DNA of 9,049 nucleotides from a bacterium (GTDB lineage Bacteria; Patescibacteria; Dojkabacteria; SC72): positions 1-9,049 of the forward strand of contig JAKPKF010000389.1 in NCBI GenBank assembly GCA_029553845.1, read 5' to 3'. The translations under genes were made by a program, and so were the position numbers. Shown one piece after another: positions 1-9,049 of this stretch. Numbering within the stretch: position 1 is the stretch's first letter; the number at the start of each line of letters is the position of its first letter. The notes beneath the pieces are model-generated. The model did no database searches. It was not told the DNA's origin and was given only the letters and a program-made list of their open reading frames with translations.

Positions 1-43
1 CCCCCACTTCGCAACCTACACAAATACCAAACTTCGCGTCCAT
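1..43 (-). CDS. 5' end of an unidentified gene with an early CxxC motif (partial)
   Basis: Only 14 complete codons are visible before the left edge: MDAKFGICVGCEVG. The start is well supported: ATG at 43-41 lies 6 nt downstream of AAAAGGAGG at 58-50, the only textbook Shine-Dalgarno sequence before a gene in the window. Another ATG at 48-46 is followed directly by TAA and is not usable. The Cys-x-x-Cys at residues 8-11 could be the first half of a zinc-binding or thiol-redox site, but 14 residues cannot decide this and no family is recognised. It is separated from the late genes by about 470 nt of structured non-coding DNA, so it may belong to another transcription unit. Confidence 0.6.
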   Translation of the reverse strand, partial: MDAKFGICVGCEVG

Positions 44-49
44 TACATA

Positions 50-58
50 CCTCCTTTT
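50..58 (-). promoter_or_regulatory. Consensus Shine-Dalgarno site of the leftmost gene
   Basis: Minus-strand AAAAGGAGG, with 6 nt between the GG end and the ATG at 43. It matches the anti-SD of bacterial 16S rRNA along its whole core. It fixes the start of the partial gene and shows that at least one gene here uses SD-led initiation. Confidence 0.75.
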
Positions 59-87
59 AGATAGTTGGATTTTGAAAGAACATCGAG

Positions 88-98
88 GCTCTTTGAGC
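88..98. repeat. Short inverted repeat GCTC-TTT-GAGC
   Basis: A 4-bp GC-rich stem with a 3-nt loop, about 30 nt upstream of the SD of the leftmost gene. It is weak alone, but is the third hairpin in a row in the presumed leader of that gene. Confidence 0.35.
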
Positions 99-107
99 AC
101 TCTTTAA

Positions 108-136
108 GGTTGGCTACCGTCGACAGTATGCCAACC
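108..136. repeat. Inverted repeat GGTTGGC / GCCAACC with bulged extension
   Basis: GGTTGGC (108-114) pairs exactly with GCCAACC (130-136). TAC (115-117) and GTA (126-128) extend the stem by 3 bp past a single bulged T at 129, leaving an 8-nt loop that contains most of a GTCGAC palindrome. No U-run follows on either strand, so a leader RNA structure or a protein-binding site is more likely than a terminator. Confidence 0.55.
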
Positions 137-138
137 AA

Positions 139-163
139 CAAGATTGCTCAATTGCTAATCTTG
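139..163. repeat. Inverted repeat CAAGATT / AATCTTG
   Basis: A perfect 7-bp stem (139-145 with 157-163) around an 11-nt loop, only 2 nt from the 108-136 hairpin. In minus-strand RNA it forms first, then 136-108, then 98-88, upstream of the SD at 58-50. No T-run flanks it. Confidence 0.5.
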
Positions 164-309
164 AAGAATTATGTCATTTTGATAGAACTTTTGATACATT
201 AAAAACCTTTCTGTCATTAAATTCATGGGCTTTTCCTGCATTCCACTGTGATACAGGTCTTATGTACCCCACTACTCTAGAATATATTTCACATCTCTGT
301 CTATTTACC

Positions 310-340
310 ATTGTCAAATAATTGTCAAGTTAATTGTAAA
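310..340. repeat. Three tandem ATTGTCAA-type direct repeats, 11-12 bp apart
   Basis: Plus-strand units ATTGTCAAA (310), ATTGTCAAG (321) and ATTGTAAAG (333). On the minus strand they read CTTTACAAT, CTTGACAAT, TTTGACAAT. The spacing of about one helical turn puts the copies on one face of the DNA, as in operator or iteron arrays. Two copies contain TTGACA on the minus strand and could serve as -35 elements for the leftmost gene, but no good -10 lies 16-18 nt downstream of either. Function is not established. Confidence 0.5.
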
Positions 341-346
341 GGGGGC

Positions 347-391
347 GGGCTGGAAATGTAGTCGGAAACCAGCCCCATTTTATTTTCTTTC
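347..391 (+). terminator. Rho-independent terminator-like hairpin, plus-strand polarity
   Basis: GGGCTGG (347-353) pairs with CCAGCCC (369-375) around a 15-nt loop. It is followed on the plus strand by CATTTTATTTTCTTTC. A GC stem with a T-rich tail is the form of an intrinsic terminator for rightward transcription. Read leftwards, the stem is followed by GCCCCC and a short TTTA, a poor terminator. No plus-strand gene lies upstream, so either it ends an unannotated RNA, blocks stray transcription into the late genes, or works imperfectly in both directions. Confidence 0.45.
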
Positions 392-434
392 GCCGAACCC
401 CCAATGCTGTTATTCTTACCCCTTTATTACCAGC

Positions 435-483
435 AGCCCTGCTGAACTTATCCGAGTTTTTCGGGGGTACAGGGCTTTTGTTT
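435..483 (+). terminator. Second terminator-like structure with an alternative hairpin
   Basis: AGCCCTG (435-441) pairs with CAGGGCT (470-476), followed by TTTGTTT on the plus strand. The long enclosed segment has its own small hairpin CCGA/TCGG (452-455 with 461-464). The left arm can instead fold locally as CAGCA-GCCC-TGCTG (432-443 region), which excludes the terminator stem. In addition, ACCCCC at 397-402 can pair with GGGGGT at 463-468. Such competing folds resemble an attenuator, but no ligand or leader peptide is recognised. Confidence 0.35.
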
Positions 484-486
484 CCA

Positions 487-510
487 TAACATACGGAAAA
501 GCGTATGTTA
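487..510. repeat. Perfect 9-bp inverted repeat just after the metallophosphoesterase stop
   Basis: TAACATACG (487-495) and CGTATGTTA (502-510) with a 6-nt GAAAAG loop. On the minus strand it starts 6 nt past the TGA of the metallophosphoesterase. It lacks a U-tract, so it is not a canonical intrinsic terminator; it could protect the 3' end of the late mRNA, mark a processing site or bind a dimeric protein. Confidence 0.55.
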
Positions 511-516
511 CAGAAA

Positions 517-1467
517 TCATTGCATGTACTCCCACATAGTCTTTATCATCTGGTCTGTGTCCATAATCCTCATCTGTTTCATAGCATGGTCAAACAGTAC
601 CCAATACATTCCTAACTCAGCGCCACTCTGTTTCCTATATCCACTGTCCTTTGTAAATTCATTTTCTAATTGGTAAGTTCCACTCATCAGACTATAGGTC
701 ATTCTTGACTTATTAAACTCTTTTACTGGCTGTTCAGAAAACCCTTTCCTGTGTGTGTGCCCAGCAAATACTAGGTCTAGTCCTTGTACTTCACGATGTC
801 CACGAACAGCTGGGTGTGTATTGTTATAAATACTACTTCCCATTAAACGATGGCTGCCCATTAACCTATAGTTTACATCATTCACATAAAGGTCTATGAA
901 TGCATTTCCATAAAATACAGGTGCTTCATATCTTTTACTCAATCCAGCATACTTACTTATTCCGTTTTTTCTCTCCCACTTATGGTCGTGGTTGCCTTTC
1001 CACATAGCAAGTATCCTATCTTTTCCTATGTAGTCTAGTATACTTAACATCCACGCCCTTTGTTCCTCCAACGATAAGAACGCCTCATCTTGTGCCGGGT
1101 TAAAGTTTGCACTATCTGTTAAATCACCCATTAAAAATACCCCAGAAACAAGAGGGTGATTCGCCATTATGTCTACATCCCTCTTTAACATCTCTGTGTC
1201 TATAGTAGAGCCAAGATGCCAGTCTCCTGTTATTCCTATACACACAGGTCTATCACTAACTAATTCTATTTTTGCATAGTCGTAAACGTCTTCGGTTTCT
1301 GCACGTGTCTTTTGTCTTCTTTCAGCCTCTTCAAACCACCTTTCTGCGTCTAACCCCTCTGGTCTTGTAAAGGTAACTTTTGCCTTAGGGGTTTCAATCT
1401 CTGGAACTACCTCTTTGTAACTATCCTCCCTGTCAGAATAGTATAAACCATTCTCTTTCTCTGGCAT
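517..1467 (-). CDS. Calcineurin-like metallophosphoesterase
   Basis: This 316-residue protein carries the full metallophosphoesterase signature in order: GDWH (D82, H84), GDLTD (D115), GNHD (N159, H160), GSH (H206) and GHTH (H237, H239). These are the expected ligands of a two-metal centre (Mn/Fe/Zn in the family) that hydrolyses phosphomono- or diesters, so it is predicted active. The substrate is not evident: family members act on proteins, nucleotides or DNA ends (SbcD/Mre11), and no SbcC-like partner is seen. About 65 charged residues precede the first motif and match no domain I know. There is no signal peptide, so it is probably cytoplasmic. It is the last gene of the leftward run, 17 nt after the holin candidate. 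ATG at 1467 has no SD; its leader is AT-rich. Confidence 0.9.
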   Translation of the reverse strand: MPEKENGLYYSDREDSYKEVVPEIETPKAKVTFTRPEGLDAERWFEEAERRQKTRAETEDVYDYAKIELVSDRPVCIGITGDWHLGSTIDTEMLKRDVDIMANHPLVSGVFLMGDLTDSANFNPAQDEAFLSLEEQRAWMLSILDYIGKDRILAMWKGNHDHKWERKNGISKYAGLSKRYEAPVFYGNAFIDLYVNDVNYRLMGSHRLMGSSIYNNTHPAVRGHREVQGLDLVFAGHTHRKGFSEQPVKEFNKSRMTYSLMSGTYQLENEFTKDSGYRKQSGAELGMYWVLFDHAMKQMRIMDTDQMIKTMWEYMQ

Positions 1468-1484
1468 TTCACTAATATTAAAAA

Positions 1485-1712
1485 TTATTCTTTACTCTCT
1501 CCTTCTACATATTTAGCAATCCCATAAATTGCAGTGTTAATGAACAAATAGATAAGCAAGGTTGCCCAGTAAGGCATCTGAAACTGAGCAATAACATCTA
1601 ACAACCCAGTTAAGAAGAATGTTGCTGTTCCAGATAGTGCCATCCACTTCGAAGCTTGGGTCAACCTTCCAGAAGCATAAGACACTCTTTCCTGTTTTGT
1701 TAATTCTGTCAT
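1485..1712 (-). CDS. Small two-helix membrane protein, holin candidate
   Basis: This 75-residue protein has a charged N-terminus (about residues 1-22), a hydrophobic segment around 24-42, a short turn with QMPYW, a second hydrophobic segment around 49-67, and an acidic/basic tail ending EGESKE. Small size, two membrane helices, charged ends and a place next to an endopeptidase gene fit a class II-like holin, which would open the inner membrane for lysis; no specific holin family is recognised. The ATG at 1712 overlaps the TGA of the preceding 28-codon ORF as ATGA and has no SD, which suggests translational coupling. A general small virion membrane protein remains possible. Confidence 0.65.
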   Translation of the reverse strand: MTELTKQERVSYASGRLTQASKWMALSGTATFFLTGLLDVIAQFQMPYWATLLIYLFINTAIYGIAKYVEGESKE

Positions 1713-1795
1713 GGCTTTGACAATAAAAATTTAAGTAAAATATAAAAACATAGTATAAAGGCAGAACTGTATATTATATTTAGTACAGTACTCAC
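1709..1795 (-). CDS. Candidate 28-residue single-pass membrane peptide
   Basis: A GTG-started frame lies in the 152-nt gap between the M23 gene and the holin candidate. It encodes a hydrophobic stretch containing NIIYSSAFILCFYILLKFLL and ends in SKP. Its TGA overlaps the ATG of the next gene (ATGA). The GTG follows a purine-rich run (AGAGAGAAAAGG), a possible weak ribosome site. The frame is open all the way back to the M23 stop codon: 51 codons in the same frame, though GTG is the only conventional start ahead of the hydrophobic part. AT-rich non-coding DNA readily yields Phe/Ile/Leu/Tyr codons, so chance is a real alternative. If genuine, it could be an antiholin or a second pore-forming peptide. 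Confidence 0.35.
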   Translation of the reverse strand: MSTVLNIIYSSAFILCFYILLKFLLSKP

Positions 1796-1831
1796 CCTTT
1801 TCTCTCTTTCTCTAATTAATTTTCCAACACT

Positions 1832-1863
1832 ATTATAAGTTCTAATAGTCTTGTTCTCTTCAA
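1832..1863 (-). promoter_or_regulatory. Weak promoter candidate in the gap before the small membrane genes
   Basis: The minus strand has a perfect TATAAT (1837-1832), with TTGAAG (1863-1858) 20 nt upstream. That spacing is longer than the usual 16-18 nt, and no extended TG is present, so support is limited. If used, initiation near 1825 would give a separate transcript for the 28-codon ORF, the holin candidate and the metallophosphoesterase. The gap is AT-rich, so a chance TATAAT is quite possible. Confidence 0.2.
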
Positions 1864-1864
1864 T

Positions 1865-2890
1865 TTAAGCCGTTCTATGGAAGGCTTTGGTTATACGTCT
1901 CCACAGTTCGGCAATTAACTCTCCGATACTAGCACTCTTTACTGTTCCATTCATAAGTAGTTCGTTTTTCTCTGCTTCAAACCTATCTCTTTCTTCTTTT
2001 ACCCTATCTAGTTCTATATCGGTTTCTCTTATTTCGTCGTCCCTTGATTTTAAGGTTGCCTCTAAGAACTCAACCCTCTCATTCAAGAGCTTTACCTGCC
2101 CCTGTGAGGCCCCTAGAGCCTCAACAAGGCCCCTGTTTTCCTCCTCGAGTGTTTGTATACGTTTAACATATTCCTCGCAATTAGGGGCATCAGGGGGCGT
2201 TACGGGAGGTGTTTCAGGTTCTTTGTATAATTCAAACTTTCCGACATTAGCAACCCAGCCACTTCCGCCACCAAAATCCATATCCCACCAAATATTGTCA
2301 TCGTCTTCTCCCTTTCCGAACTGTTTGTTCTGAGATGTTCTTGGTCCATCTTTAATTGTTGCGGTTTGACCTACCTTTGTATCTCCAATATCATCAAACT
2401 TATCCCCAGCACCTTTCCTTATATTCTGAACTCCTGTAAATATAACTTTATCGCCTACCTTAAATGTCTCCATATTGTCATTCATTACAAATAATGTTGG
2501 GTCAACTCTAGTATTTAGATTGTCCCATTTAGTTAGCCATTCAAAGTGAAGATGGTCTCCATGGCTGTGTCCTGAATTACCAGTGCAACAAATCTGTTGA
2601 CCAGCAACAACTGTATCGCCAACTTTAACCTTAACATCTTTTGGATAACTATGAATATATCTTGAGCCTGAACCGTCCTTATGCTTTATATAAATAATAG
2701 GGGCATCTTTATATTCAACGCCATCTTTTGTGTAGCCAGATAATATTTTCCAAACAGTTCCACTAACTGCCCTATTGGGTAGATAAATTGGTTGCCTTAC
2801 AACCCCACGAGACAAGTCTACCCCCTTGTGGCTAGAAGAGAATGCTTGTGTAACCCTTACATCGTCTTTCTTAAATAATGAAGTGTACAT
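1865..2890 (-). CDS. M23 zinc endopeptidase with SH3 and coiled-coil domains (endolysin-like)
   Basis: 341 residues in four parts. Residues 10-135 are an M23/LytM peptidase: HKGVD supplies zinc ligands H21 and D25, HLH supplies H113 and ligand H115, and H80 is the second active-site histidine. M23 enzymes cut peptide cross-links of peptidoglycan. Residues 141-222 look like a bacterial SH3 domain (FKVGDKV, NIRKGAG, IWWDM, GWVANVG), usual for wall binding. A Pro-rich linker (224-236) leads to a long charged coiled coil (239-312) and an amphipathic C-terminal helix (about 321-338). No signal peptide is seen, so export by a holin or a place in the virion is expected. The start is forced: TAA lies two codons upstream, and no other ATG, GTG or TTG precedes H21. 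No SD is present. The coiled coil is unusual for a simple endolysin and may drive oligomerisation or anchoring. Confidence 0.9.
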   Translation of the reverse strand: MYTSLFKKDDVRVTQAFSSSHKGVDLSRGVVRQPIYLPNRAVSGTVWKILSGYTKDGVEYKDAPIIYIKHKDGSGSRYIHSYPKDVKVKVGDTVVAGQQICCTGNSGHSHGDHLHFEWLTKWDNLNTRVDPTLFVMNDNMETFKVGDKVIFTGVQNIRKGAGDKFDDIGDTKVGQTATIKDGPRTSQNKQFGKGEDDDNIWWDMDFGGGSGWVANVGKFELYKEPETPPVTPPDAPNCEEYVKRIQTLEEENRGLVEALGASQGQVKLLNERVEFLEATLKSRDDEIRETDIELDRVKEERDRFEAEKNELLMNGTVKSASIGELIAELWRRITKAFHRTA

Positions 2891-2895
2891 ATTTT

Positions 2896-2924
2896 ATAAT
2901 ATCATAACTTAGTCAGAATGTCAA
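2896..2924 (-). promoter_or_regulatory. Sigma70-type promoter directly before the M23 gene
   Basis: On the minus strand TTGACA (2924-2919), a spacer of exactly 17 nt, then TATTAT (2901-2896), one mismatch from TATAAT. Only 5 nt separate the -10 from the ATG at 2890. Since initiation normally occurs about 6-8 nt after the -10, the transcript would start at or within a couple of bases of the ATG, giving a leaderless or nearly leaderless mRNA. The -35 overlaps the TGA stop of the upstream gene. This is the best promoter match noticed in the window. Confidence 0.5.
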
Positions 2925-3697
2925 TATCCCATAGCACGCAGAACAGAGTAGAAGTTCTTTGTCCAAGTATCTGGATTGTCTCCACCAGTATAAGTGTATA
3001 TCTTTTCTGGGGTTAGCTCTGAAAATCTACTTCCAGGTCCAAAATTTCTTAATAGGTCTTGTGCCATTATTTCCCAAGATTCTGGGTCATACTGGTTCGC
3101 TGGTTGTCCATTTTTAGAAATATGTATCCCAAACCAATTTGTGTTTTTAAGTTTTCCATCCCCCTTAAAACTAGTAGCCGCCTTTCCTGCGCCAGTCTCT
3201 GCAATTGATGCAGCAACAGCTTTTGCCATGGTGTCTGGGTCTAAGTATCCAGCTAATAGGTTTAGTATCTCTGGTGTATATCTAGTGCCCGGATAAGAGA
3301 GGGCGTAATCTTTTATCTTTTTATATTGCTTCTGTCTCTCTATTTCTTCTAGTGTAGCAATCGTCCTTCCATCCAGGATATCATAACCAGTTGGAATTTT
3401 TTCATATTGTTCCCCTGTCTTAAACATAGTGTACAACTCTGTCGGGTCTAAGGCCCTACCGTTATAAAGAGTATTTCCAGGTCCTATTGGCCTCTCTGTG
3501 TCGGCAGTTAACCTTCCCTGTCTCCTATATGACTCTAACTCTCTTATTGTCTCTGCTGGTAGCATAACATCCAGTGGTAAGGGTTTCCTTCCAAAGAGTG
3601 CATCTATAGGTTTTATATAACCACCCATATTAAGGTCTCCAGTAGAAAGTCCCTCTTTGGATAGAGATTGTAGAAGATTTTTCCAATAACCAGACAT
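2921..3697 (-). CDS. Virion-associated or lytic protein with C-terminal lysozyme-like (GH73-type) domain
   Basis: 258 residues. The first 130 or so are hydrophilic and unrecognised. The C-terminal part (about 140-258) resembles the glucosaminidase/lysozyme-like fold: AASIAETGAGK (catalytic Glu candidate E167), NTNWFGIHI (185-193), a Tyr-Asp...Trp segment (Y203, W208), then IYTYTGGDNPDTW (233-245) ahead of the terminal helix. In GH73-type N-acetylglucosaminidases the same order is seen: Glu at the end of a helix, an N-x-WGI-like strand, and a late Y...W region. It would cleave the glycan strands, complementing the M23 enzyme encoded just downstream. No signal peptide or wall-binding repeat is seen; the unknown N-terminus may attach it to the virion. 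The family match is by motif only. ATG at 3697 has no SD. Confidence 0.6.
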   Translation of the reverse strand: MSGYWKNLLQSLSKEGLSTGDLNMGGYIKPIDALFGRKPLPLDVMLPAETIRELESYRRQGRLTADTERPIGPGNTLYNGRALDPTELYTMFKTGEQYEKIPTGYDILDGRTIATLEEIERQKQYKKIKDYALSYPGTRYTPEILNLLAGYLDPDTMAKAVAASIAETGAGKAATSFKGDGKLKNTNWFGIHISKNGQPANQYDPESWEIMAQDLLRNFGPGSRFSELTPEKIYTYTGGDNPDTWTKNFYSVLRAMGY

Positions 3698-3713
3698 CTT
3701 AAAACATTTAATG

Positions 3714-4166
3714 TTATTTAGCTAAATTTGCAATCCATTTAATAAACTCTTCTAAAAGTGGAAGTGCATTAAGAAATGTTGTAATACCAAGAACAGTAAA
3801 CAACCATCCTATATGCCTATTGGTTGCTATCATCTTTCCTAAAGTTTCAAACTTTGATTCACTTTCGCCCTTATCGCGAGTATTCATGTCTTCAAACCAT
3901 TCTATTACGGGTCTTATTCTCTCTTCTATCCTATTCTCTGTATTACGTCTTGCATATTGATATGCAAAGTTGGCCCTCCATTTAAGAGTTTCATCCTGTT
4001 CCATTCCACTTTCTCCTAAAAGCATACGCTCTAACCTCGCTAAGATATCTCCTTGCTTTCTTATCTCGTCTCTTAACTGGTTCATTTCCTTCGTAATAAT
4101 TTTTAAGGACTCTTCTTTTGCAATTTTCCTAACCTCTTTTTCAGTTATTATCTTTGTTTCTGTCAT
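3714..4166 (-). CDS. Coiled-coil protein with C-terminal membrane segment (XhlA-like topology)
   Basis: 150 residues, very charged. A helical coiled-coil region covers about 8-50 (heptad-like pattern through LRDEIRKQGDILARLERML), a second charged helix about 60-95, then a hydrophobic segment about 118-137 (HIGWLFTVLGITTFLNALPLL), and a short amphipathic tail. This resembles phage XhlA-type proteins, which have an N-terminal coiled coil and a C-terminal transmembrane helix and act with holins in lysis in PBSX-like phages. The present protein is longer and the match is of layout, not recognised sequence. It starts 7 nt after the stop of the 1122-residue gene with no SD, so coupled translation is likely. 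A virion membrane protein used in DNA entry is an alternative. Confidence 0.6.
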   Translation of the reverse strand: MTETKIITEKEVRKIAKEESLKIITKEMNQLRDEIRKQGDILARLERMLLGESGMEQDETLKWRANFAYQYARRNTENRIEERIRPVIEWFEDMNTRDKGESESKFETLGKMIATNRHIGWLFTVLGITTFLNALPLLEEFIKWIANLAK

Positions 4167-4173
4167 AGTAGTT

Positions 4174-7100
4174 TTACTTTAATAGTTGTTCTTTCAGGCC
4201 GGCAGGAATATATAATCTTTGATACGCTTCGGCAATTCCCTTTCTTCTCAAAAGCTCATACAAAGCCTCCTCGGCTTTCTTTTGTCTAATAGCCTCAGGG
4301 TCTCTAACATTTGTATCTTCTATTCTACCAGGAAAAAGGAGGTCTGTCAAGTTCTTAACGGTTGGTCCTTCTACTGCTAGATTAGAAAGCCTCTTGCCGG
4401 CTGTGTTAAGAGTACTTACAAACGGTAAGTTCTCTAGTGCGTGCCTAGTAAGTGGGGCTACTGTACTCTTAGTATAGGTTTTCCCATTGTCTAACTTAAC
4501 CTCATATTCTTTATAATTCAATAACTTCTTAAGGAGTTCAGACCTATTCTTATATGGCAATCCCTGATTTACATTTAGTATATCCTCGTTCCTATACATG
4601 TCCTTTCCGGTCATTCTTTCTATTAAGTAACTAAGCGTTGGAGAAAGGTTCTCCGAAATAGACTCTGGCCCCTTAAGCTCTTCAATTCCTAGATTTAATC
4701 CAGTAAGGTATTTTAAGTTTCCTTCTTCGTCTAGCCCAAGTGGAATAGTTAATGTTTCTTTTAAGTAGTCTGGAGCCGCTTCCCATTCTTCTCTATATTG
4801 ACTCTGAGAACCAGACTGTAACCCTTGGTATACATTCATATACCTTGAAATTTTTTCTGGGTTTCTCTGTAATGTTCCTAAATAAAACTTTAGGTTGTTC
4901 TTAACAAACCCGTAGAATGGAATAATCTTCCTAAGCGTTTCTCTCTCAAACTTTGTTAGTTCGTTATAGTTGAAGTTAACCCTGTCCACTGCGTCTGCAC
5001 CCGCAGCCATTGCACCCTCCTTCCTCCAGTTGCTAAAGAATGTAGCCATCCTAGTAGCCTGTTCTCTTCTTGGTAATAGCCCACCAACAGTCATTATGTC
5101 TTCATAGATTTCACTAGCCTTTTCGCCAGCAGACAACTTCTTCTCGCCAGTTGTGAGCTTTCTTATATCCCTAGGAACGCCTATAGACATTTCCGATGTT
5201 GACTTACTAACACCGGTCCAAGTCCCAGTATCAAGAACTCTATTCCACAACTCGGTAAGTGGGTCGTCTGTTTTAACGCCAACCTCTTTTAAGAACTTTG
5301 CAGCTCTAGTGTTGTCAACTTGCTTAATGGCCTTCTCCCTACCTATTCTATTTGAAAGGTCTTCAAACTTAAATAGGTCAATGGCTAGTAAATAGTCATC
5401 AGGAAGGTGTTTAACGTCTGCACCATCAACAATAACCCTTATGTTATCTTCAAGTAGGTTTCTCCAGTGATAAGCAGCTGCATTGGGTCCATAGCCAGTT
5501 ACATATTTTTTCCACACCCTTTGAACCTTTTCGAGAGAATTTAACAACTCTTCAATTCCCTCCTGTGTTGTGTACTTTGCTATATAATCCTCGGCTATTT
5601 TTGCCATTGTTTTGTCCGTGTAGAATGTTCCCTTTCCTGGTATAGTTACTGGTGTTCTTAGAGTTCCTGTTGGAACCTTACTAAACGAATCACTATTGGT
5701 TACCAAATCGTCTACAAATTTAGACACTAGTATTTGTTCATTTTGCCTCACTGTTTGTTCGTAAATATCTGGCAAGATATCTTCTCCATATCTAATTCCC
5801 GCCTTCTCTGCCTGTGCTCGCGTCTTAAAAACTCTTTCCTTAGTAGCGCCACCACCCATTATCTCCTCTCCCAAAAAACCCGGGTCATACCTTTTAATTG
5901 CATCTAAAGTATCTTTGTCAATAGCCTTTCTAAGTGTCTTTACTTTAACTGCACCAGTCTCAGATAATTCTTTGGCAACCTTTTTATTTGCCAATAACTT
6001 ATCGTACTCACCTTCTAACCCCGCATCTTTAAGAAAGCTCTTTAATGCTTTCTTTTCATACGCTTCTGGTTTCCTCATTAAATATCCCATTTCTTTAGGG
6101 CTTATTGTTGGTAACCCAGCCTCTTGTAAAGCTTTAGTTTTTGTACTCTCAAAAGACATATACTTAGAAAGAAAGTCTTTAACATTCTTAGACGCCTCTT
6201 TTGGAAGCACAAGTAATTCTCCCTTAGGTCCAATGTCAGTTCCCAAGTAATCATCAACAAGCTTTGCTATAGATGGCTTATCTACAAGGAGGTCTTCTCC
6301 TATCGCACTAGCCCTGGTAGACAAGTCATATAACATTTGTTGTGCTTCTGGTGTTAATTCTTTAAACAACTTCTGGAACTTTCCAATATTATCCGCACTT
6401 TCTTCTCCTATGTTTTTAAGTGCCTTTGCTGGCTTAACCCCCTTCTCTGGATAAATAACATCTGGAGTGGTTATCTTATTAACAAACTCGTCTAAAGCAT
6501 CAACAACCTCTCCCTTCTTCTTAAATAACTCCCTTGCAGTATCTCCCTGGGCGTATGCTTCCTTTGACGCTTCTATAAGGTCATCAAGACCCTTCCTTTC
6601 CTTCTTTCCCAGCTTTCCTATTGACTCTAATATTTCCGAATCTCTTAATTCACTTAACACCTTTCTTGGAACACCAGGAACAGCTCTCTGAATAGAAAGA
6701 AGTTTCCTTGCTTCCTCCCCATGTCCTGCCTCTATGGCAGCCTGAACGGGGTCAAATGTACTTAAGAAGTTACTCCTAACACCTGGTATAAATTTCTTAG
6801 TTGCGGCACCAGCTACATCCATTCCAGCACTGAGGGGATTCACAAGGGCCTTAGACGCAAGTACTGCCGTCGGATTTTCGGTAACTGTTTGACCAAAAAG
6901 TTTTAGCGCACCACTCTTTAGTGGACCCCTTCCTACTGTTTGGGTTGCATGAACATATAGTGCATCTGCGACATCATCTCCATACTTAGAGGAAACCTTC
7001 TTTAAGGCTTGTTCTAATGTACTCCCAGAAAGTTCTTTTACAGCACCTTCTACAATATCATCAGAAAGACCAGCAAGTTTTAATCCTCCCCTAAGAACAT

Positions 7101-7542
7101 CATCAAGTAGTGTAGTAGCACCAAAAGAAAAGTATGTGGTTGGGTCTGTAATAATTTCGGCAGCTACATCCATCGCCATTCTAGCAGCAGTACTCTGACC
7201 AAGTTTACTGTACTTAAATCCTGGCATAGCCTTGTCTAATGTCTCTGAGATTCCCTGACTTATTAAGTCTGGTTCATAATTCTTTCCAGTAGCAAGTGTT
7301 CCAAAACCCTGTATTACATTCTGACCATAATTCTTTAATACATTTAAAAGTTTTGGATTTTTGTCTAGGTATCTCGCATCGTAGTATGCGTCAATAATAG
7401 AGCCTATTCCTGTTAATGGGGCTATAATTCTCCCTAGTGCCCCAACTTTTGGTTTAGACTCTTCTCCATACTGCTCTAATAATTGTTTTAATAAGGCATC
7501 TGACGAACCGCCAGAGCCCATGTTTACTATTCTTACTGCCAT
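4174..7542 (-). CDS. Large (1122-residue) phage protein, probable internal virion or DNA-ejection protein
   Basis: A long, largely helical, Lys/Glu/Ala/Leu-rich protein without signal peptide. Several stretches recall large phage polyvalent or internal virion proteins: DPTTYFSFG (133-141), GYGPNAAAYHWRNLLEDN (683-700, similar to the P-x-F-x-x-RN-x-x-x-D motif of such proteins), PRREQATRMATFF (824-836), and FNYNELTKFERETLRKIIPF (857-876) with a following NPEK at 894-897. The last two resemble the LPD38-type 'large polyvalent protein-associated' region, from memory and without a search. Glycine- and alanine-containing apolar patches (about 35-50, 235-250) could contact membrane. By size and order it parallels T7 gp15/gp16, but no transglycosylase motif is seen here; a lysozyme-like domain lies in a separate downstream gene. 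ATG at 7542 has no SD; Met8 is an alternative start. Confidence 0.7.
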   Translation of the reverse strand: MAVRIVNMGSGGSSDALLKQLLEQYGEESKPKVGALGRIIAPLTGIGSIIDAYYDARYLDKNPKLLNVLKNYGQNVIQGFGTLATGKNYEPDLISQGISETLDKAMPGFKYSKLGQSTAARMAMDVAAEIITDPTTYFSFGATTLLDDVLRGGLKLAGLSDDIVEGAVKELSGSTLEQALKKVSSKYGDDVADALYVHATQTVGRGPLKSGALKLFGQTVTENPTAVLASKALVNPLSAGMDVAGAATKKFIPGVRSNFLSTFDPVQAAIEAGHGEEARKLLSIQRAVPGVPRKVLSELRDSEILESIGKLGKKERKGLDDLIEASKEAYAQGDTARELFKKKGEVVDALDEFVNKITTPDVIYPEKGVKPAKALKNIGEESADNIGKFQKLFKELTPEAQQMLYDLSTRASAIGEDLLVDKPSIAKLVDDYLGTDIGPKGELLVLPKEASKNVKDFLSKYMSFESTKTKALQEAGLPTISPKEMGYLMRKPEAYEKKALKSFLKDAGLEGEYDKLLANKKVAKELSETGAVKVKTLRKAIDKDTLDAIKRYDPGFLGEEIMGGGATKERVFKTRAQAEKAGIRYGEDILPDIYEQTVRQNEQILVSKFVDDLVTNSDSFSKVPTGTLRTPVTIPGKGTFYTDKTMAKIAEDYIAKYTTQEGIEELLNSLEKVQRVWKKYVTGYGPNAAAYHWRNLLEDNIRVIVDGADVKHLPDDYLLAIDLFKFEDLSNRIGREKAIKQVDNTRAAKFLKEVGVKTDDPLTELWNRVLDTGTWTGVSKSTSEMSIGVPRDIRKLTTGEKKLSAGEKASEIYEDIMTVGGLLPRREQATRMATFFSNWRKEGAMAAGADAVDRVNFNYNELTKFERETLRKIIPFYGFVKNNLKFYLGTLQRNPEKISRYMNVYQGLQSGSQSQYREEWEAAPDYLKETLTIPLGLDEEGNLKYLTGLNLGIEELKGPESISENLSPTLSYLIERMTGKDMYRNEDILNVNQGLPYKNRSELLKKLLNYKEYEVKLDNGKTYTKSTVAPLTRHALENLPFVSTLNTAGKRLSNLAVEGPTVKNLTDLLFPGRIEDTNVRDPEAIRQKKAEEALYELLRRKGIAEAYQRLYIPAGLKEQLLK

Positions 7543-7558
7543 TGTTAGGTTTCTTTAA

Positions 7559-8371
7559 TTATAAGCCGTATCCATTATAACCAGCAACCGCCCTTCTCAT
7601 CTCTTCTTTCTCGTTTTCTATGTCAAGTAGGGTTTTGATTATACTGTAAATACCTCCACCTGCACCGCCAACAGCCGCACCAAACCCTGTTCCAACAACT
7701 GGAACAATACTACCAATTCCAGCACCAATAGCCGCACCAGTTCCAACTCCAGACAGGGCATTCTTAAATGTATTTACATCACCACCACTAAACACCTCGG
7801 CCAATGTTGGGTCATAATTGGTATAAGCATTTATCTGTTCTGGAGTAGCCTGTGTTGCTAAGTACTTATTCCAATTAAACTGGTCTTCTGTCAGGGTTTC
7901 ATAGTCTTGTAGCGCCTTCAGTGCCTTTTGTCTTACAATGTCTTCGTACGTCTGGGGAATTTCATTAGGCCCAAAAGTAGAAATACCTCCGTATCCGGTC
8001 TGATTAGTATTGGTAAGGACTGGAAACGCATCTAAAAACAATGTTAACCCAATGTTTTTTATTGCCTCATCATTCGACATCATCGCACTAATGGCGGCAT
8101 TAATCTGCCTGTCTCTCTCGGCACCCACGTCTCCCCTAAGTTCTGCCTGATTAAAAGGGTTTGTGTAATCTAAATAATACCCAAGAAGTTCCTTTTGTAA
8201 CGAAGGGTTTCCTTGGTTAGCACTTATTAACTGATACAAATACTGACCATACTGGTCTTGTCCTCCAGCACCAAAGCTGCCAGCATTAGAACCCCCAAGG
8301 ATAGCCCTTGCCTGTTCCATATAAGGTTGTGCCTGTGGTGTTTTTGACCATTCTAATATATATGGGTCCAT
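7559..8371 (-). CDS. 270-residue protein with glycine-zipper segment, probable virion or ejection component
   Basis: Residues 1-200 are hydrophilic and rich in Gln, Asn, Tyr and Gly (for example GGQDQYGQYLYQLISANQ at 36-53). Residues 208-247 form a long apolar segment with repeated small residues (SGVGTGAAIGAGIG, then VVGTGFGAAVGGAGGG), a glycine-zipper pattern able to pack as membrane helices. A charged helix (250-260) and a GYNGYGL tail follow. Proteins with one such segment next to very large virion proteins are common in podovirus ejection modules, so a pore- or tube-forming role during DNA entry is inferred; no family is recognised. Its ATG overlaps the upstream TAA by one base (TAATG), with AGAGGA 8 nt ahead. 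Confidence 0.65.
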   Translation of the reverse strand: MDPYILEWSKTPQAQPYMEQARAILGGSNAGSFGAGGQDQYGQYLYQLISANQGNPSLQKELLGYYLDYTNPFNQAELRGDVGAERDRQINAAISAMMSNDEAIKNIGLTLFLDAFPVLTNTNQTGYGGISTFGPNEIPQTYEDIVRQKALKALQDYETLTEDQFNWNKYLATQATPEQINAYTNYDPTLAEVFSGGDVNTFKNALSGVGTGAAIGAGIGSIVPVVGTGFGAAVGGAGGGIYSIIKTLLDIENEKEEMRRAVAGYNGYGL

Positions 8372-9049
8372 TATCTTAATCCTCTAAAATTATTTAACAA
8401 GTCCCTCGCTGTTAAGGGTTTATATGCCGTTGATAAGCCCTTCGTAGAATATCCAGACAAAGAACTTATTGGTGTATAAAGTGGTTTGCTTTGTACTGGC
8501 TTCTTCGAAGTTGGAACTGGAGTGTAGTTCTTTTTAGTAGGAACTGGGGTATAATTTTTTCCAGTTGTTTGTGCTTTGTTCCATGCCTCATTTGCCTTTG
8601 CATTCCACTGCTCTTGCTTTTTAGCCTGGTCTACAGCGGCCAAATACCATGCTAACTCTGCCTCGTTCATTCCAGACGGAGGTGGCGGAACTGCAACCCC
8701 TCCCCCTCCGCTCAACGCTCTTCTCATCTGTTCTCTTGCCAGTGCCATTTGGTCTTCATGTTGCTTCTGGGCCCACCATCTGTCATATGCATTCTGTGCG
8801 CCCTGATATCCTGTTGCCCACTGACTGACACCCGTTTTAATTAGGTCTTCCATTCCCGCCCTCCTAACGTCAAAAGCATCTCTGGCCACTTGTGCCGCTG
8901 TTGCCATTCTTGCCTGGTTTTTCCATGCATTCTGTAAAAGTGTCAACGGAGAAAGGTCTGTTAACCCACTATCAACCCCATAACCACTTAGTGCAGAATA
9001 AAAAGATGGAAACTGCTCGTTCTCATAAGTACGAACAAGTTCAGACTCT
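8371..9049 (-). CDS. Ala/Gln-rich virion-type protein, C-terminal 225 residues (5' end outside window)
   Basis: The frame is open to the right edge and shows no stop there, so the gene begins beyond the window; a TTG at 8946 is not a convincing start, having no SD and in-frame coding-like sequence (ESELVRTYENEQFPSF...) before it. The visible part has a short loop region, then an Ala/Gln/Arg-rich helical stretch (about residues 38-105, QNAWKNQARMATAAQVARDA and following), a GGGGVAVPPPP hinge (about 110-120), a second Trp/Ala/Gln-rich helix (121-147), a doubled KNYTPVPT repeat, and a Ser/Tyr/Lys-rich tail. Composition resembles T7 gp14-type internal virion proteins, but no homology is recognised. 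It shares one base with the next gene. Confidence 0.7.
   Translation of the reverse strand, partial: ESELVRTYENEQFPSFYSALSGYGVDSGLTDLSPLTLLQNAWKNQARMATAAQVARDAFDVRRAGMEDLIKTGVSQWATGYQGAQNAYDRWWAQKQHEDQMALAREQMRRALSGGGGVAVPPPPSGMNEAELAWYLAAVDQAKKQEQWNAKANEAWNKAQTTGKNYTPVPTKKNYTPVPTSKKPVQSKPLYTPISSLSGYSTKGLSTAYKPLTARDLLNNFRGLR
8380..8385 (-). promoter_or_regulatory. Shine-Dalgarno-like AGAGGA inside the end of the upstream gene
   Basis: AGAGGA ends 8 nt before the ATG at 8371 and encodes part of the last codons of the upstream gene (FRGLR). Together with the 1-nt TAATG overlap it supports coupled translation. It is the only recognisable SD-like site before a late gene in this window, apart from the purine run at 1796-1807. 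Confidence 0.45.
8509..8559 (-). repeat. Tandem 27-bp coding repeat (KNYTPVPT twice)
   Basis: Two 24-nt units (8559-8536 and 8532-8509) encode KNYTPVPT followed by K or S, with a period of 27 nt. Protein identity is complete over eight residues while several third codon positions differ (AAT/AAC, TAT/TAC, ACC/ACT, CCT/CCA), so the repeat is not a fresh DNA duplication but appears kept at the protein level. A weaker third relative, PLYTPISS, follows. Confidence 0.7.

What the first reader, a model, noticed from the sequence alone, without database searches (positions are those of the whole stretch)
1..9049. Complete absence of GATC in 9 kb
Scanning all lines and line joins by eye I found no GATC, although GAT is followed by A, T or G dozens of times. 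At equal base frequency about 35 would be expected (9049/256), and around 30 with this composition. Other palindromic tetramers (GGCC, CCGG, GTAC, CATG, CTAG, TCGA, AGCT, CGCG, GCGC) all occur. Such selective loss is typical of phages facing a restriction enzyme of the DpnII/MboI/Sau3AI type, or a methyl-directed system acting at GATC. It gives a clue to the host's defences.
Basis: partly seen in the sequence, partly recalled or inferred. Interest (0 to 1): 0.75.

Follow-up and report, generated by a model that had tools for sequence, protein, structure and literature searches.

The report
Phage clade purged of GATC sites
This stretch of an uncultured phage contains no GATC at all, and so do its close relatives, most likely because their unknown bacterial hosts cut DNA at that word; it is a clean new case of a known phage survival strategy.

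Summary
GATC is the only one of 256 tetramers missing from the 9,049-base window; dinucleotide shuffles give 18.1, sd 3.5, and synonymous-codon shuffles give 20, minimum 10. It is not local. The window is a virion/lysis block of an uncultured tailed phage whose IMG/VR relatives also have none: 0 in a complete 45.8 kb genome (about 98 expected in its genes), 0 in a 49 kb genome once a chimeric contig end is set aside, and 0 in nine further contigs. Nine records together give 0 against 365 expected in genes (one of them is a near copy carrying about 7). The purge runs through synonymous codons: Asp before C is GAC in 310 of 310 cases in five records. Other palindromes (CCGG, GCGC, CGCG, GGCC, ACGT) are eliminated only in particular members, and one nested member, G009, has 82 GATC but has nearly lost CCGG and GCGC. 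Such a swapping set fits Type II restriction better than mismatch repair. No DNA methylase family was found in the 11 avoider records searched, most of them fragments. The host is unknown, so the enzyme is inferred. A strong new instance of known restriction-site avoidance.

The parts
1..9049 (.). Whole window: no GATC on either strand
517..1467 (-). Calcineurin-like metallophosphoesterase gene (316 aa); 80% identical to the G001 phage protein
   Evidence: Pfam PF00149 2.1e-6, PHROG 7339 2e-28
1485..1712 (-). 75-aa ORF next to the lysin; place and hydrophobic stretches suggest a holin (inference by eye); homologues in G001 and G005
   Evidence: no family match
1865..2890 (-). M23 peptidase endolysin (341 aa)
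   Evidence: PF01551 9.3e-12, PHROG endolysin 1.6e-12
2921..3697 (-). 258-aa ORF, unknown
   Evidence: no family
3714..4166 (-). 150-aa ORF, shared with G001 (45%)
4174..7542 (-). 1122-aa conserved phage protein without family; present in G001, G002, G005
   Evidence: no PHROG, Pfam, NCBIfam or PDB match
7559..8371 (-). 270-aa ORF, virion block; weak match to an unknown-function PHROG (4.7e-4)
8371..9048 (-). ORF running off the window's right end (225 aa seen); homologues in G001 and G005

Best explanation
The window comes from a clade of uncultured tailed phages whose genomes have been purged of GATC. Most likely their hosts carry an orthodox Type II restriction enzyme that cuts unmodified GATC (DpnII/MboI/Sau3AI-like), and phages in which a mutation makes a GATC are cut and lost. 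Shown: the absence, its extent over the clade, its dependence on synonymous choice, its absence in one nested member, and a member-specific set of further eliminated palindromes. Inferred: that the agent is a host restriction enzyme, and its exact specificity.
For: Window 0 vs 18-20. G005, complete by a 117-base terminal repeat, 45,808 bp, 0. G001, 49,243 bp: one GATC, at nt 24; two contigs of the same phage from other metagenome records (L021, L022) leave G001 at nt 46-47 and continue into its other end, so the first 45 bases are a chimeric tail. G002 (34.6 kb), G006, G010-G015 and L033: 0. Nine avoider records: 0 vs 365.4 in genes; G015 among them is a near copy of G010 (93-98%) and carries about 7. 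Asp before a C-starting codon is GAC in 29/29 (W), 93/93 (G001), 57/57 (G002), 97/97 (G005) and 34/34 (G006), against 41/79 in G003 and 23/29 in G004. One-mismatch neighbours number 369 in the window and 1,978 in G005, so absence needs steady removal. Further palindromes eliminated in some members only, of the 11 records scanned: CCGG in G005, G010, G011, G012 (and nearly in G009); GCGC and CGCG in G001, G011, G009; GGCC in G010; ACGT in G011. G009, nested by terminase (beside G010+L033, 97/99), has 82 GATC yet CCGG 2 vs 42-44 and GCGC 0 vs 15. Published: only sites of orthodox Type II systems are commonly avoided by phages, GATC being named among two exceptions (PMC6286503, passages and part 1 of the Discussion).
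Against: No host and no GATC-specific enzyme was found. In G009 the depletion left (observed/expected about 0.6) is the same in genes shared with avoiders, weakly shared and its own (0.64, 0.61, 0.62), so there is no trace of a recent switch; the tree is unrooted and its outgroup (G003) is a very long branch, so gain and loss are not told apart. TCGA is low in most records whatever their GATC state, so some palindrome loss has another cause. In the window, G002 and G013 GATC is the only site lost, so the swapping-sites argument rests on other members.
Confidence: 0.8

Rival explanations
1. Methyl-directed mismatch repair: the hosts have Dam and MutH, and GATC is selected against because MutH nicks under-methylated phage DNA or because repair lowers the mutation rate, as proposed for enterobacterial phages.
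For: phiX174 has no GATC with 20 expected, and direct counter-selection by MutH was proposed (PMC5014478, abstract and passages). GATC is the only site lost in the window, G002 and G013.
Against: Does not explain the loss of CCGG, GCGC, CGCG, GGCC or ACGT in other members, nor G009 keeping GATC while losing CCGG and GCGC. phiX174 with added GATC was not severely impaired in the short term, which sits badly with strict zero in 45-49 kb genomes. Dam/MutH is limited to some Gammaproteobacteria (recalled).
Confidence: 0.06
2. A methyl-directed nuclease (DpnI type, Type IIM) in the hosts cuts methylated GATC in phages that grew in a Dam-positive cell.
For: DpnI and DpnII both occur within one species (PMC3573125, abstract and passages). 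In PMC6286503 GATC as a Type IIM site is low in all 46 phages whose hosts encode the corresponding enzymes, 45 of them below 0.8.
Against: The same Discussion calls modification-dependent enzymes nearly harmless to unmodified phages and suggests that overlapping Type II systems cause the avoidance. No D12, N6/N4, C5 or PADLOC Type II methylase model matched any of the 11 avoider records, most of them fragments.
Confidence: 0.07
3. The phages encode their own GATC-specific nuclease that destroys host DNA and spare themselves by having no site.
For: 17 ORFs of G001 have a match in G005 but none in G009, G003 or G004, several of unknown function. A 79-83 aa HNH protein, nearest in the PDB to McrA, is in G001 and G005 and, weakly, G002.
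Against: The small HNH occurs also in G009, G003 and G004, which carry 82, 62 and 16 GATC. The one avoider-only nuclease recognised (G001 930-1688; G005, G006) is of the DNA-polymerase exonuclease-subunit family, not a site-specific type. Self-sparing would not explain the other lost palindromes. The unknown avoider-only ORFs were not excluded.
Confidence: 0.05
4. Chance, base composition, codon bias or assembly artefact.
For: The window is T-rich (35%) and low in G (16%), which lowers the expectation from 35 to about 18-20.
Against: 0 against 365 expected under synonymous shuffles that keep protein and codon use; contigs from several metagenome records agree; other palindromes are kept.
Confidence: 0.01

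Closest known systems
Staphylococcus phage K (140 kb, GATC sites eliminated; Sau3A hosts; PMC6532042, passages)
   Same: A whole tailed-phage genome without GATC; site loss protects from a GATC-cutting Type II enzyme.
   Different: Known host and enzyme there; here an unrelated uncultured clade, host unknown.
phiX174 (no GATC in 5.4 kb; PMC5014478, abstract and passages)
   Same: Zero GATC with about 20 expected.
   Different: Small ssDNA phage of a Dam/MutHLS host; mismatch repair proposed. Here dsDNA tailed phages, and in some members other palindromes are lost as well.
Restriction-site elimination in dsDNA phages (PMC6286503, abstract passages and part 1 of the Discussion)
   Same: Observed/expected under 0.1 for a short palindrome.
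   Different: Their pairs have hosts with annotated R-M; here the phages are read without the host, and one nested member keeps the site.
Staphylococcus podovirus phiAGO1.3 (2 GATC in 17.6 kb; PMC6346686, abstract and passages)
   Same: Loss of Type II sites, GATC among them.
   Different: Small known phage; loss incomplete.

Membership tests
Type II restriction-site elimination (observed/expected < 0.1) | Short palindromic site absent or nearly so at an expectation of at least 15 | tested here: met
   0 vs 18-20 in the window; 0 vs 98 in genes of G005 and 0 vs 92 in genes of G001
Type II restriction-site elimination (observed/expected < 0.1) | Not explained by codon, amino-acid or dinucleotide composition | tested here: met
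Type II restriction-site elimination (observed/expected < 0.1) | Genome-wide, not local | tested here: met
   relatives G001, G002, G005 and fragments; the window's own whole genome is not held
Type II restriction-site elimination (observed/expected < 0.1) | Host carries a restriction enzyme for the site | not testable with these tools
   no host identified
Type II restriction-site elimination (observed/expected < 0.1) | Phage does not protect the site by its own methylation | tested here: inconclusive
   0 of 11 avoider records match D12, N6/N4, C5 or the PADLOC Type II model (one weak PADLOC MTase_II hit, 0.0067, among 80 G001/G002 proteins was not borne out). G001 and G005 are whole, most others fragments; other methylase families not searched
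Type II restriction-site elimination (observed/expected < 0.1) | Near-elimination mostly in non-temperate phages | tested here: inconclusive
   no integrase among the families shown, but the census lists only 25 of 89 families
MutH/Dam-driven GATC avoidance | GATC alone is avoided | tested here: inconclusive
   true of W, G002, G013; not of G001, G005, G010, G011, G012 (TCGA is also low)
MutH/Dam-driven GATC avoidance | Host has dam and mutH | not testable with these tools
   host unknown

The most novel reading that the evidence does not exclude
In this clade the set of eliminated palindromes is a written record of host restriction: GATC is lost in every member found but one, CCGG, GCGC/CGCG, GGCC and ACGT are lost member by member, and G009 is free of the GATC constraint while under others. 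The fingerprint would name the restriction repertoire of hosts that nobody has identified, and G009 would mark a host or defence switch within a phage family.
Probability: 0.5. Interest if true: 0.5.

Novelty: new member of a known kind. Interest (0 to 1): 0.36.

Why it matters
Strict absence of one 4-base word over about 190 kb of diverged phage sequence says that almost every GATC is lethal or nearly so, hence that a GATC-cutting defence is common in the unknown hosts and long-lasting (inference). With G009 as an internal contrast, the family is a natural test of how a purged site returns when the pressure ends, and of reading host defences from phage sequence alone.

Tried and rejected
Host search. 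In 50,697 phage records: megablast of the window, no match; tblastn of the 1122-aa protein, 1 record at 25.6%; phosphoesterase, 1 record, Caldibacillus phage CBP1, at 26%; terminase, 1,841 records, all under 60%, best 35%; helicase, 743 records, all under 60%, the 15 rows listed at 25%. One scan of GTDB contigs with a terminase alignment gave 39 loci at 26-41% from many phyla. A 20 kb slice of G005 against 12 genomes gave two matches of 41 and 31 bases at E 0.006 and 0.009, taken as chance. Protein searches gave few names: 'bacterium' for a 96% relative of the 1122-aa protein, Poribacteria and Cloacimonetes at 40% for terminase (best 120 of 2,473 shown), none of use for the lysin.

Methylase trade-off. 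I tested whether members with GATC carry a methylase. G009 has no D12, N6/N4, C5 or PADLOC Type II methylase, and none showed in the Pfam scan of 31 of its ORFs. G003 carries an N6/N4 methylase cut by its contig ends; the C-terminal piece is nearest to PDB entries named DpnA and CcrM, which does not fix its specificity, so I make no claim.

Recent loss in G009. I expected lower GATC in its shared genes than in its own; not seen. At GATC sites of G009 with conserved residues the nearest avoider kept 0 of 12, against 49 of 150 for six control palindromes (p 0.019); weak, and circular in that avoiders have no GATC at all.

A lysin comparison of the window with G004 was uninformative: G004 has no GATC there. 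An exact 60-base test of the G001 junction failed in both L021 and L022; alignment then showed L022 matching across it at 98.25% without a gap and L021 with 64 extra bases.

Control set. Of the loci L034-L149 (other terminase relatives), 113 have an expectation of at least 15: none has zero GATC, two are under 0.1 (L125 6 vs 69.7, L043 1 vs 20.4). Below that threshold L064 has 0 vs 12-14.

Print. Seven paper searches list no report of this clade among the rows shown; they cover only the held open-licence library.

Full report
OBSERVATION. GATC occurs 0 times in the 9,049-base window, and is the only one of the 256 tetramers that is absent. The fair expectation is 18-20, not 30-35: 18.14 (sd 3.53) over 200 dinucleotide shuffles and 20.0 (sd 3.3, minimum 10) over 200 shuffles of synonymous codons among the window's eight called genes. 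The codon shuffle uses codon pools already shaped by avoidance, so it is conservative.

WHAT THE WINDOW IS. Eight genes on the minus strand: a calcineurin-like phosphoesterase (517-1467), a 75-aa probable holin (by place and eye only), an M23 endolysin (1865-2890), and a block with a 1122-aa protein that matches no PHROG, Pfam, NCBIfam or PDB family. No whole genome is held for it and no record in the GenBank phage set is close. Relatives come from IMG/VR: G001 (49,243 bp; 80% identity in the phosphoesterase, 51% in the 1122-aa protein), G002 (34,635 bp) and, through terminase and capsid, G005, G006 and G009-G016 (G016 is L033). Among 80 proteins of G001 and G002 one each matches Pfam's SU10 portal and adaptor.

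EXTENT. GATC is 0 in G002 (expected 49 second-order, 79 first-order), 0 in G005 (97, 136; complete, 117-base terminal repeat), and 0 in G006, G010, G011, G012, G013, G014, G015 and L033. G001 has one, at nt 24. L022 runs from G001 nt 49,176 into nt 47, and L021 follows G001 to about nt 49,220 and then bridges into nt 46. The first 45 bases of G001, with the lone GATC, are therefore a chimeric end; L021 and L022 have none. Some records are near copies (G014 of G001; G006 and G012 of G005; G015 of G010, 93-98%), and G002 and L033 come from one metagenome. For nine records (W, G001, G002, G005, G010, G011, G013, G015, L033) genes hold 0 against 365.4 expected; leaving out G015 takes off about 7.

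HOW IT IS DONE. By synonymous choice: Asp before a codon starting with C is always GAC (29/29, 93/93, 57/57, 97/97, 34/34 in W, G001, G002, G005, G006) although GAT is the commoner Asp codon elsewhere in four of these five; in the same five Ile after G is never ATC, and Ser after GA is never TCN. In G003 and G004, relatives outside the group, 38 of 79 and 6 of 29 Asp codons in that place are GAT. One-mismatch neighbours of GATC are plentiful (369 in W, 1,978 in G005), so sites must be removed as they arise (inference).

CAUSE. The telling pattern is that other palindromes are eliminated too, but not in all members: GCGC 0 vs 19 and CGCG 0 vs 8 in G001; CCGG 0 vs 40 in G005, 0 vs 17 in G010 and G011, 0 vs 21 in G012; GGCC 0 vs 22 in G010; ACGT 0 vs 28, GCGC 1 vs 12 and CGCG 0 vs 10 in G011; CATG 1 vs 30 in G006. 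G009 (46,102 bp, 127-base terminal repeat) lies inside the group in the terminase tree, beside G010+L033 (97/99), and has 82 GATC in all (143-158 expected), 77-79 in genes against 122-126, while CCGG is 2 vs 44 and GCGC 0 vs 15. The portal tree agrees in part (94/91), the capsid tree leaves G009 unresolved; rows are few, G011 and G003 are long branches, and the trees are unrooted. One shared and several swapping lost sites is what Type II restriction would leave. Mismatch repair predicts GATC alone, which holds for W, G002 and G013 but not for five others. A nuclease of the phage's own is not supported by the one candidate tested, a small HNH that is also in G003, G004 and G009, but 17 ORFs shared by G001 and G005 and missing from those three were not excluded.

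AGAINST. No host was found, so no enzyme was seen. The residual depletion in G009 is uniform (0.61-0.64) between genes shared with avoiders and its own, giving no sign of a recent release. TCGA is low in most records, also in G003 and G004, which restriction at GATC does not explain. Methylase searches covered four models in 14 records; other families and the unseen parts of fragments are open.

KNOWN OR NEW. Site elimination is known: phage K lost GATC and escapes Sau3A (PMC6532042, passages), phiX174 lacks GATC (PMC5014478, abstract and passages), and GATC, counted as a Type IIM site, is low in all 46 phages whose hosts have the corresponding enzymes (PMC6286503). The clade and its changing fingerprint, including the nested member with GATC, appeared in none of the rows listed by seven searches of the held library.

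Noticed in passing
L005:3992-8803 (G001); G005 13044-17999: A four-gene cassette with GATase_6, amidoligase_2 and RimK-like ATP-grasp proteins, conserved between G001 and G005 and without a match in G009, G003 or G004; possibly makes a peptide or wall modification (inference).
   Followed up: partly
L043 (5,007 bp, contig 3300009285_007213): A distant terminase relative (33%) from the same metagenome record as G001 has 1 GATC against 20-26 expected: perhaps independent avoidance under the same pressure.
   Followed up: no
G004 (L019, L020): TCGA 4 against 44-45 expected in genes of a phage sharing a 78%-identical lysin domain with the window, while GATC is 15 vs 43: a different lost site.
   Followed up: partly
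G003 ends (L170, L171): An N6/N4 DNA methylase gene cut by the contig ends; G003 strongly lacks GTSAC (1 vs 32) and ACSGT (1 vs 31), which resemble restriction targets.
   Followed up: partly
window 4174-7542: 1122-aa conserved protein with 18 matches in the protein database (995 candidates scored) and no PHROG, Pfam, NCBIfam or PDB match.
   Followed up: partly
window 174-311, minus strand: A 45-aa ORF whose sequence recalls the C-terminal part of anaerobic ribonucleotide reductase (from memory); a PDB sequence search found nothing at E up to 1.
   Followed up: partly
G001 nt 1-45 and about 49221-49243: Chimeric contig ends; the right end reads like an ABC-transporter signature (from memory), so IMG/VR record 3300009285_000570 carries a few foreign bases.
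   Followed up: yes
L125 (uncultured Anaerolineae contig): 6 GATC against 47-70 expected in a 62% GC locus.
   Followed up: no
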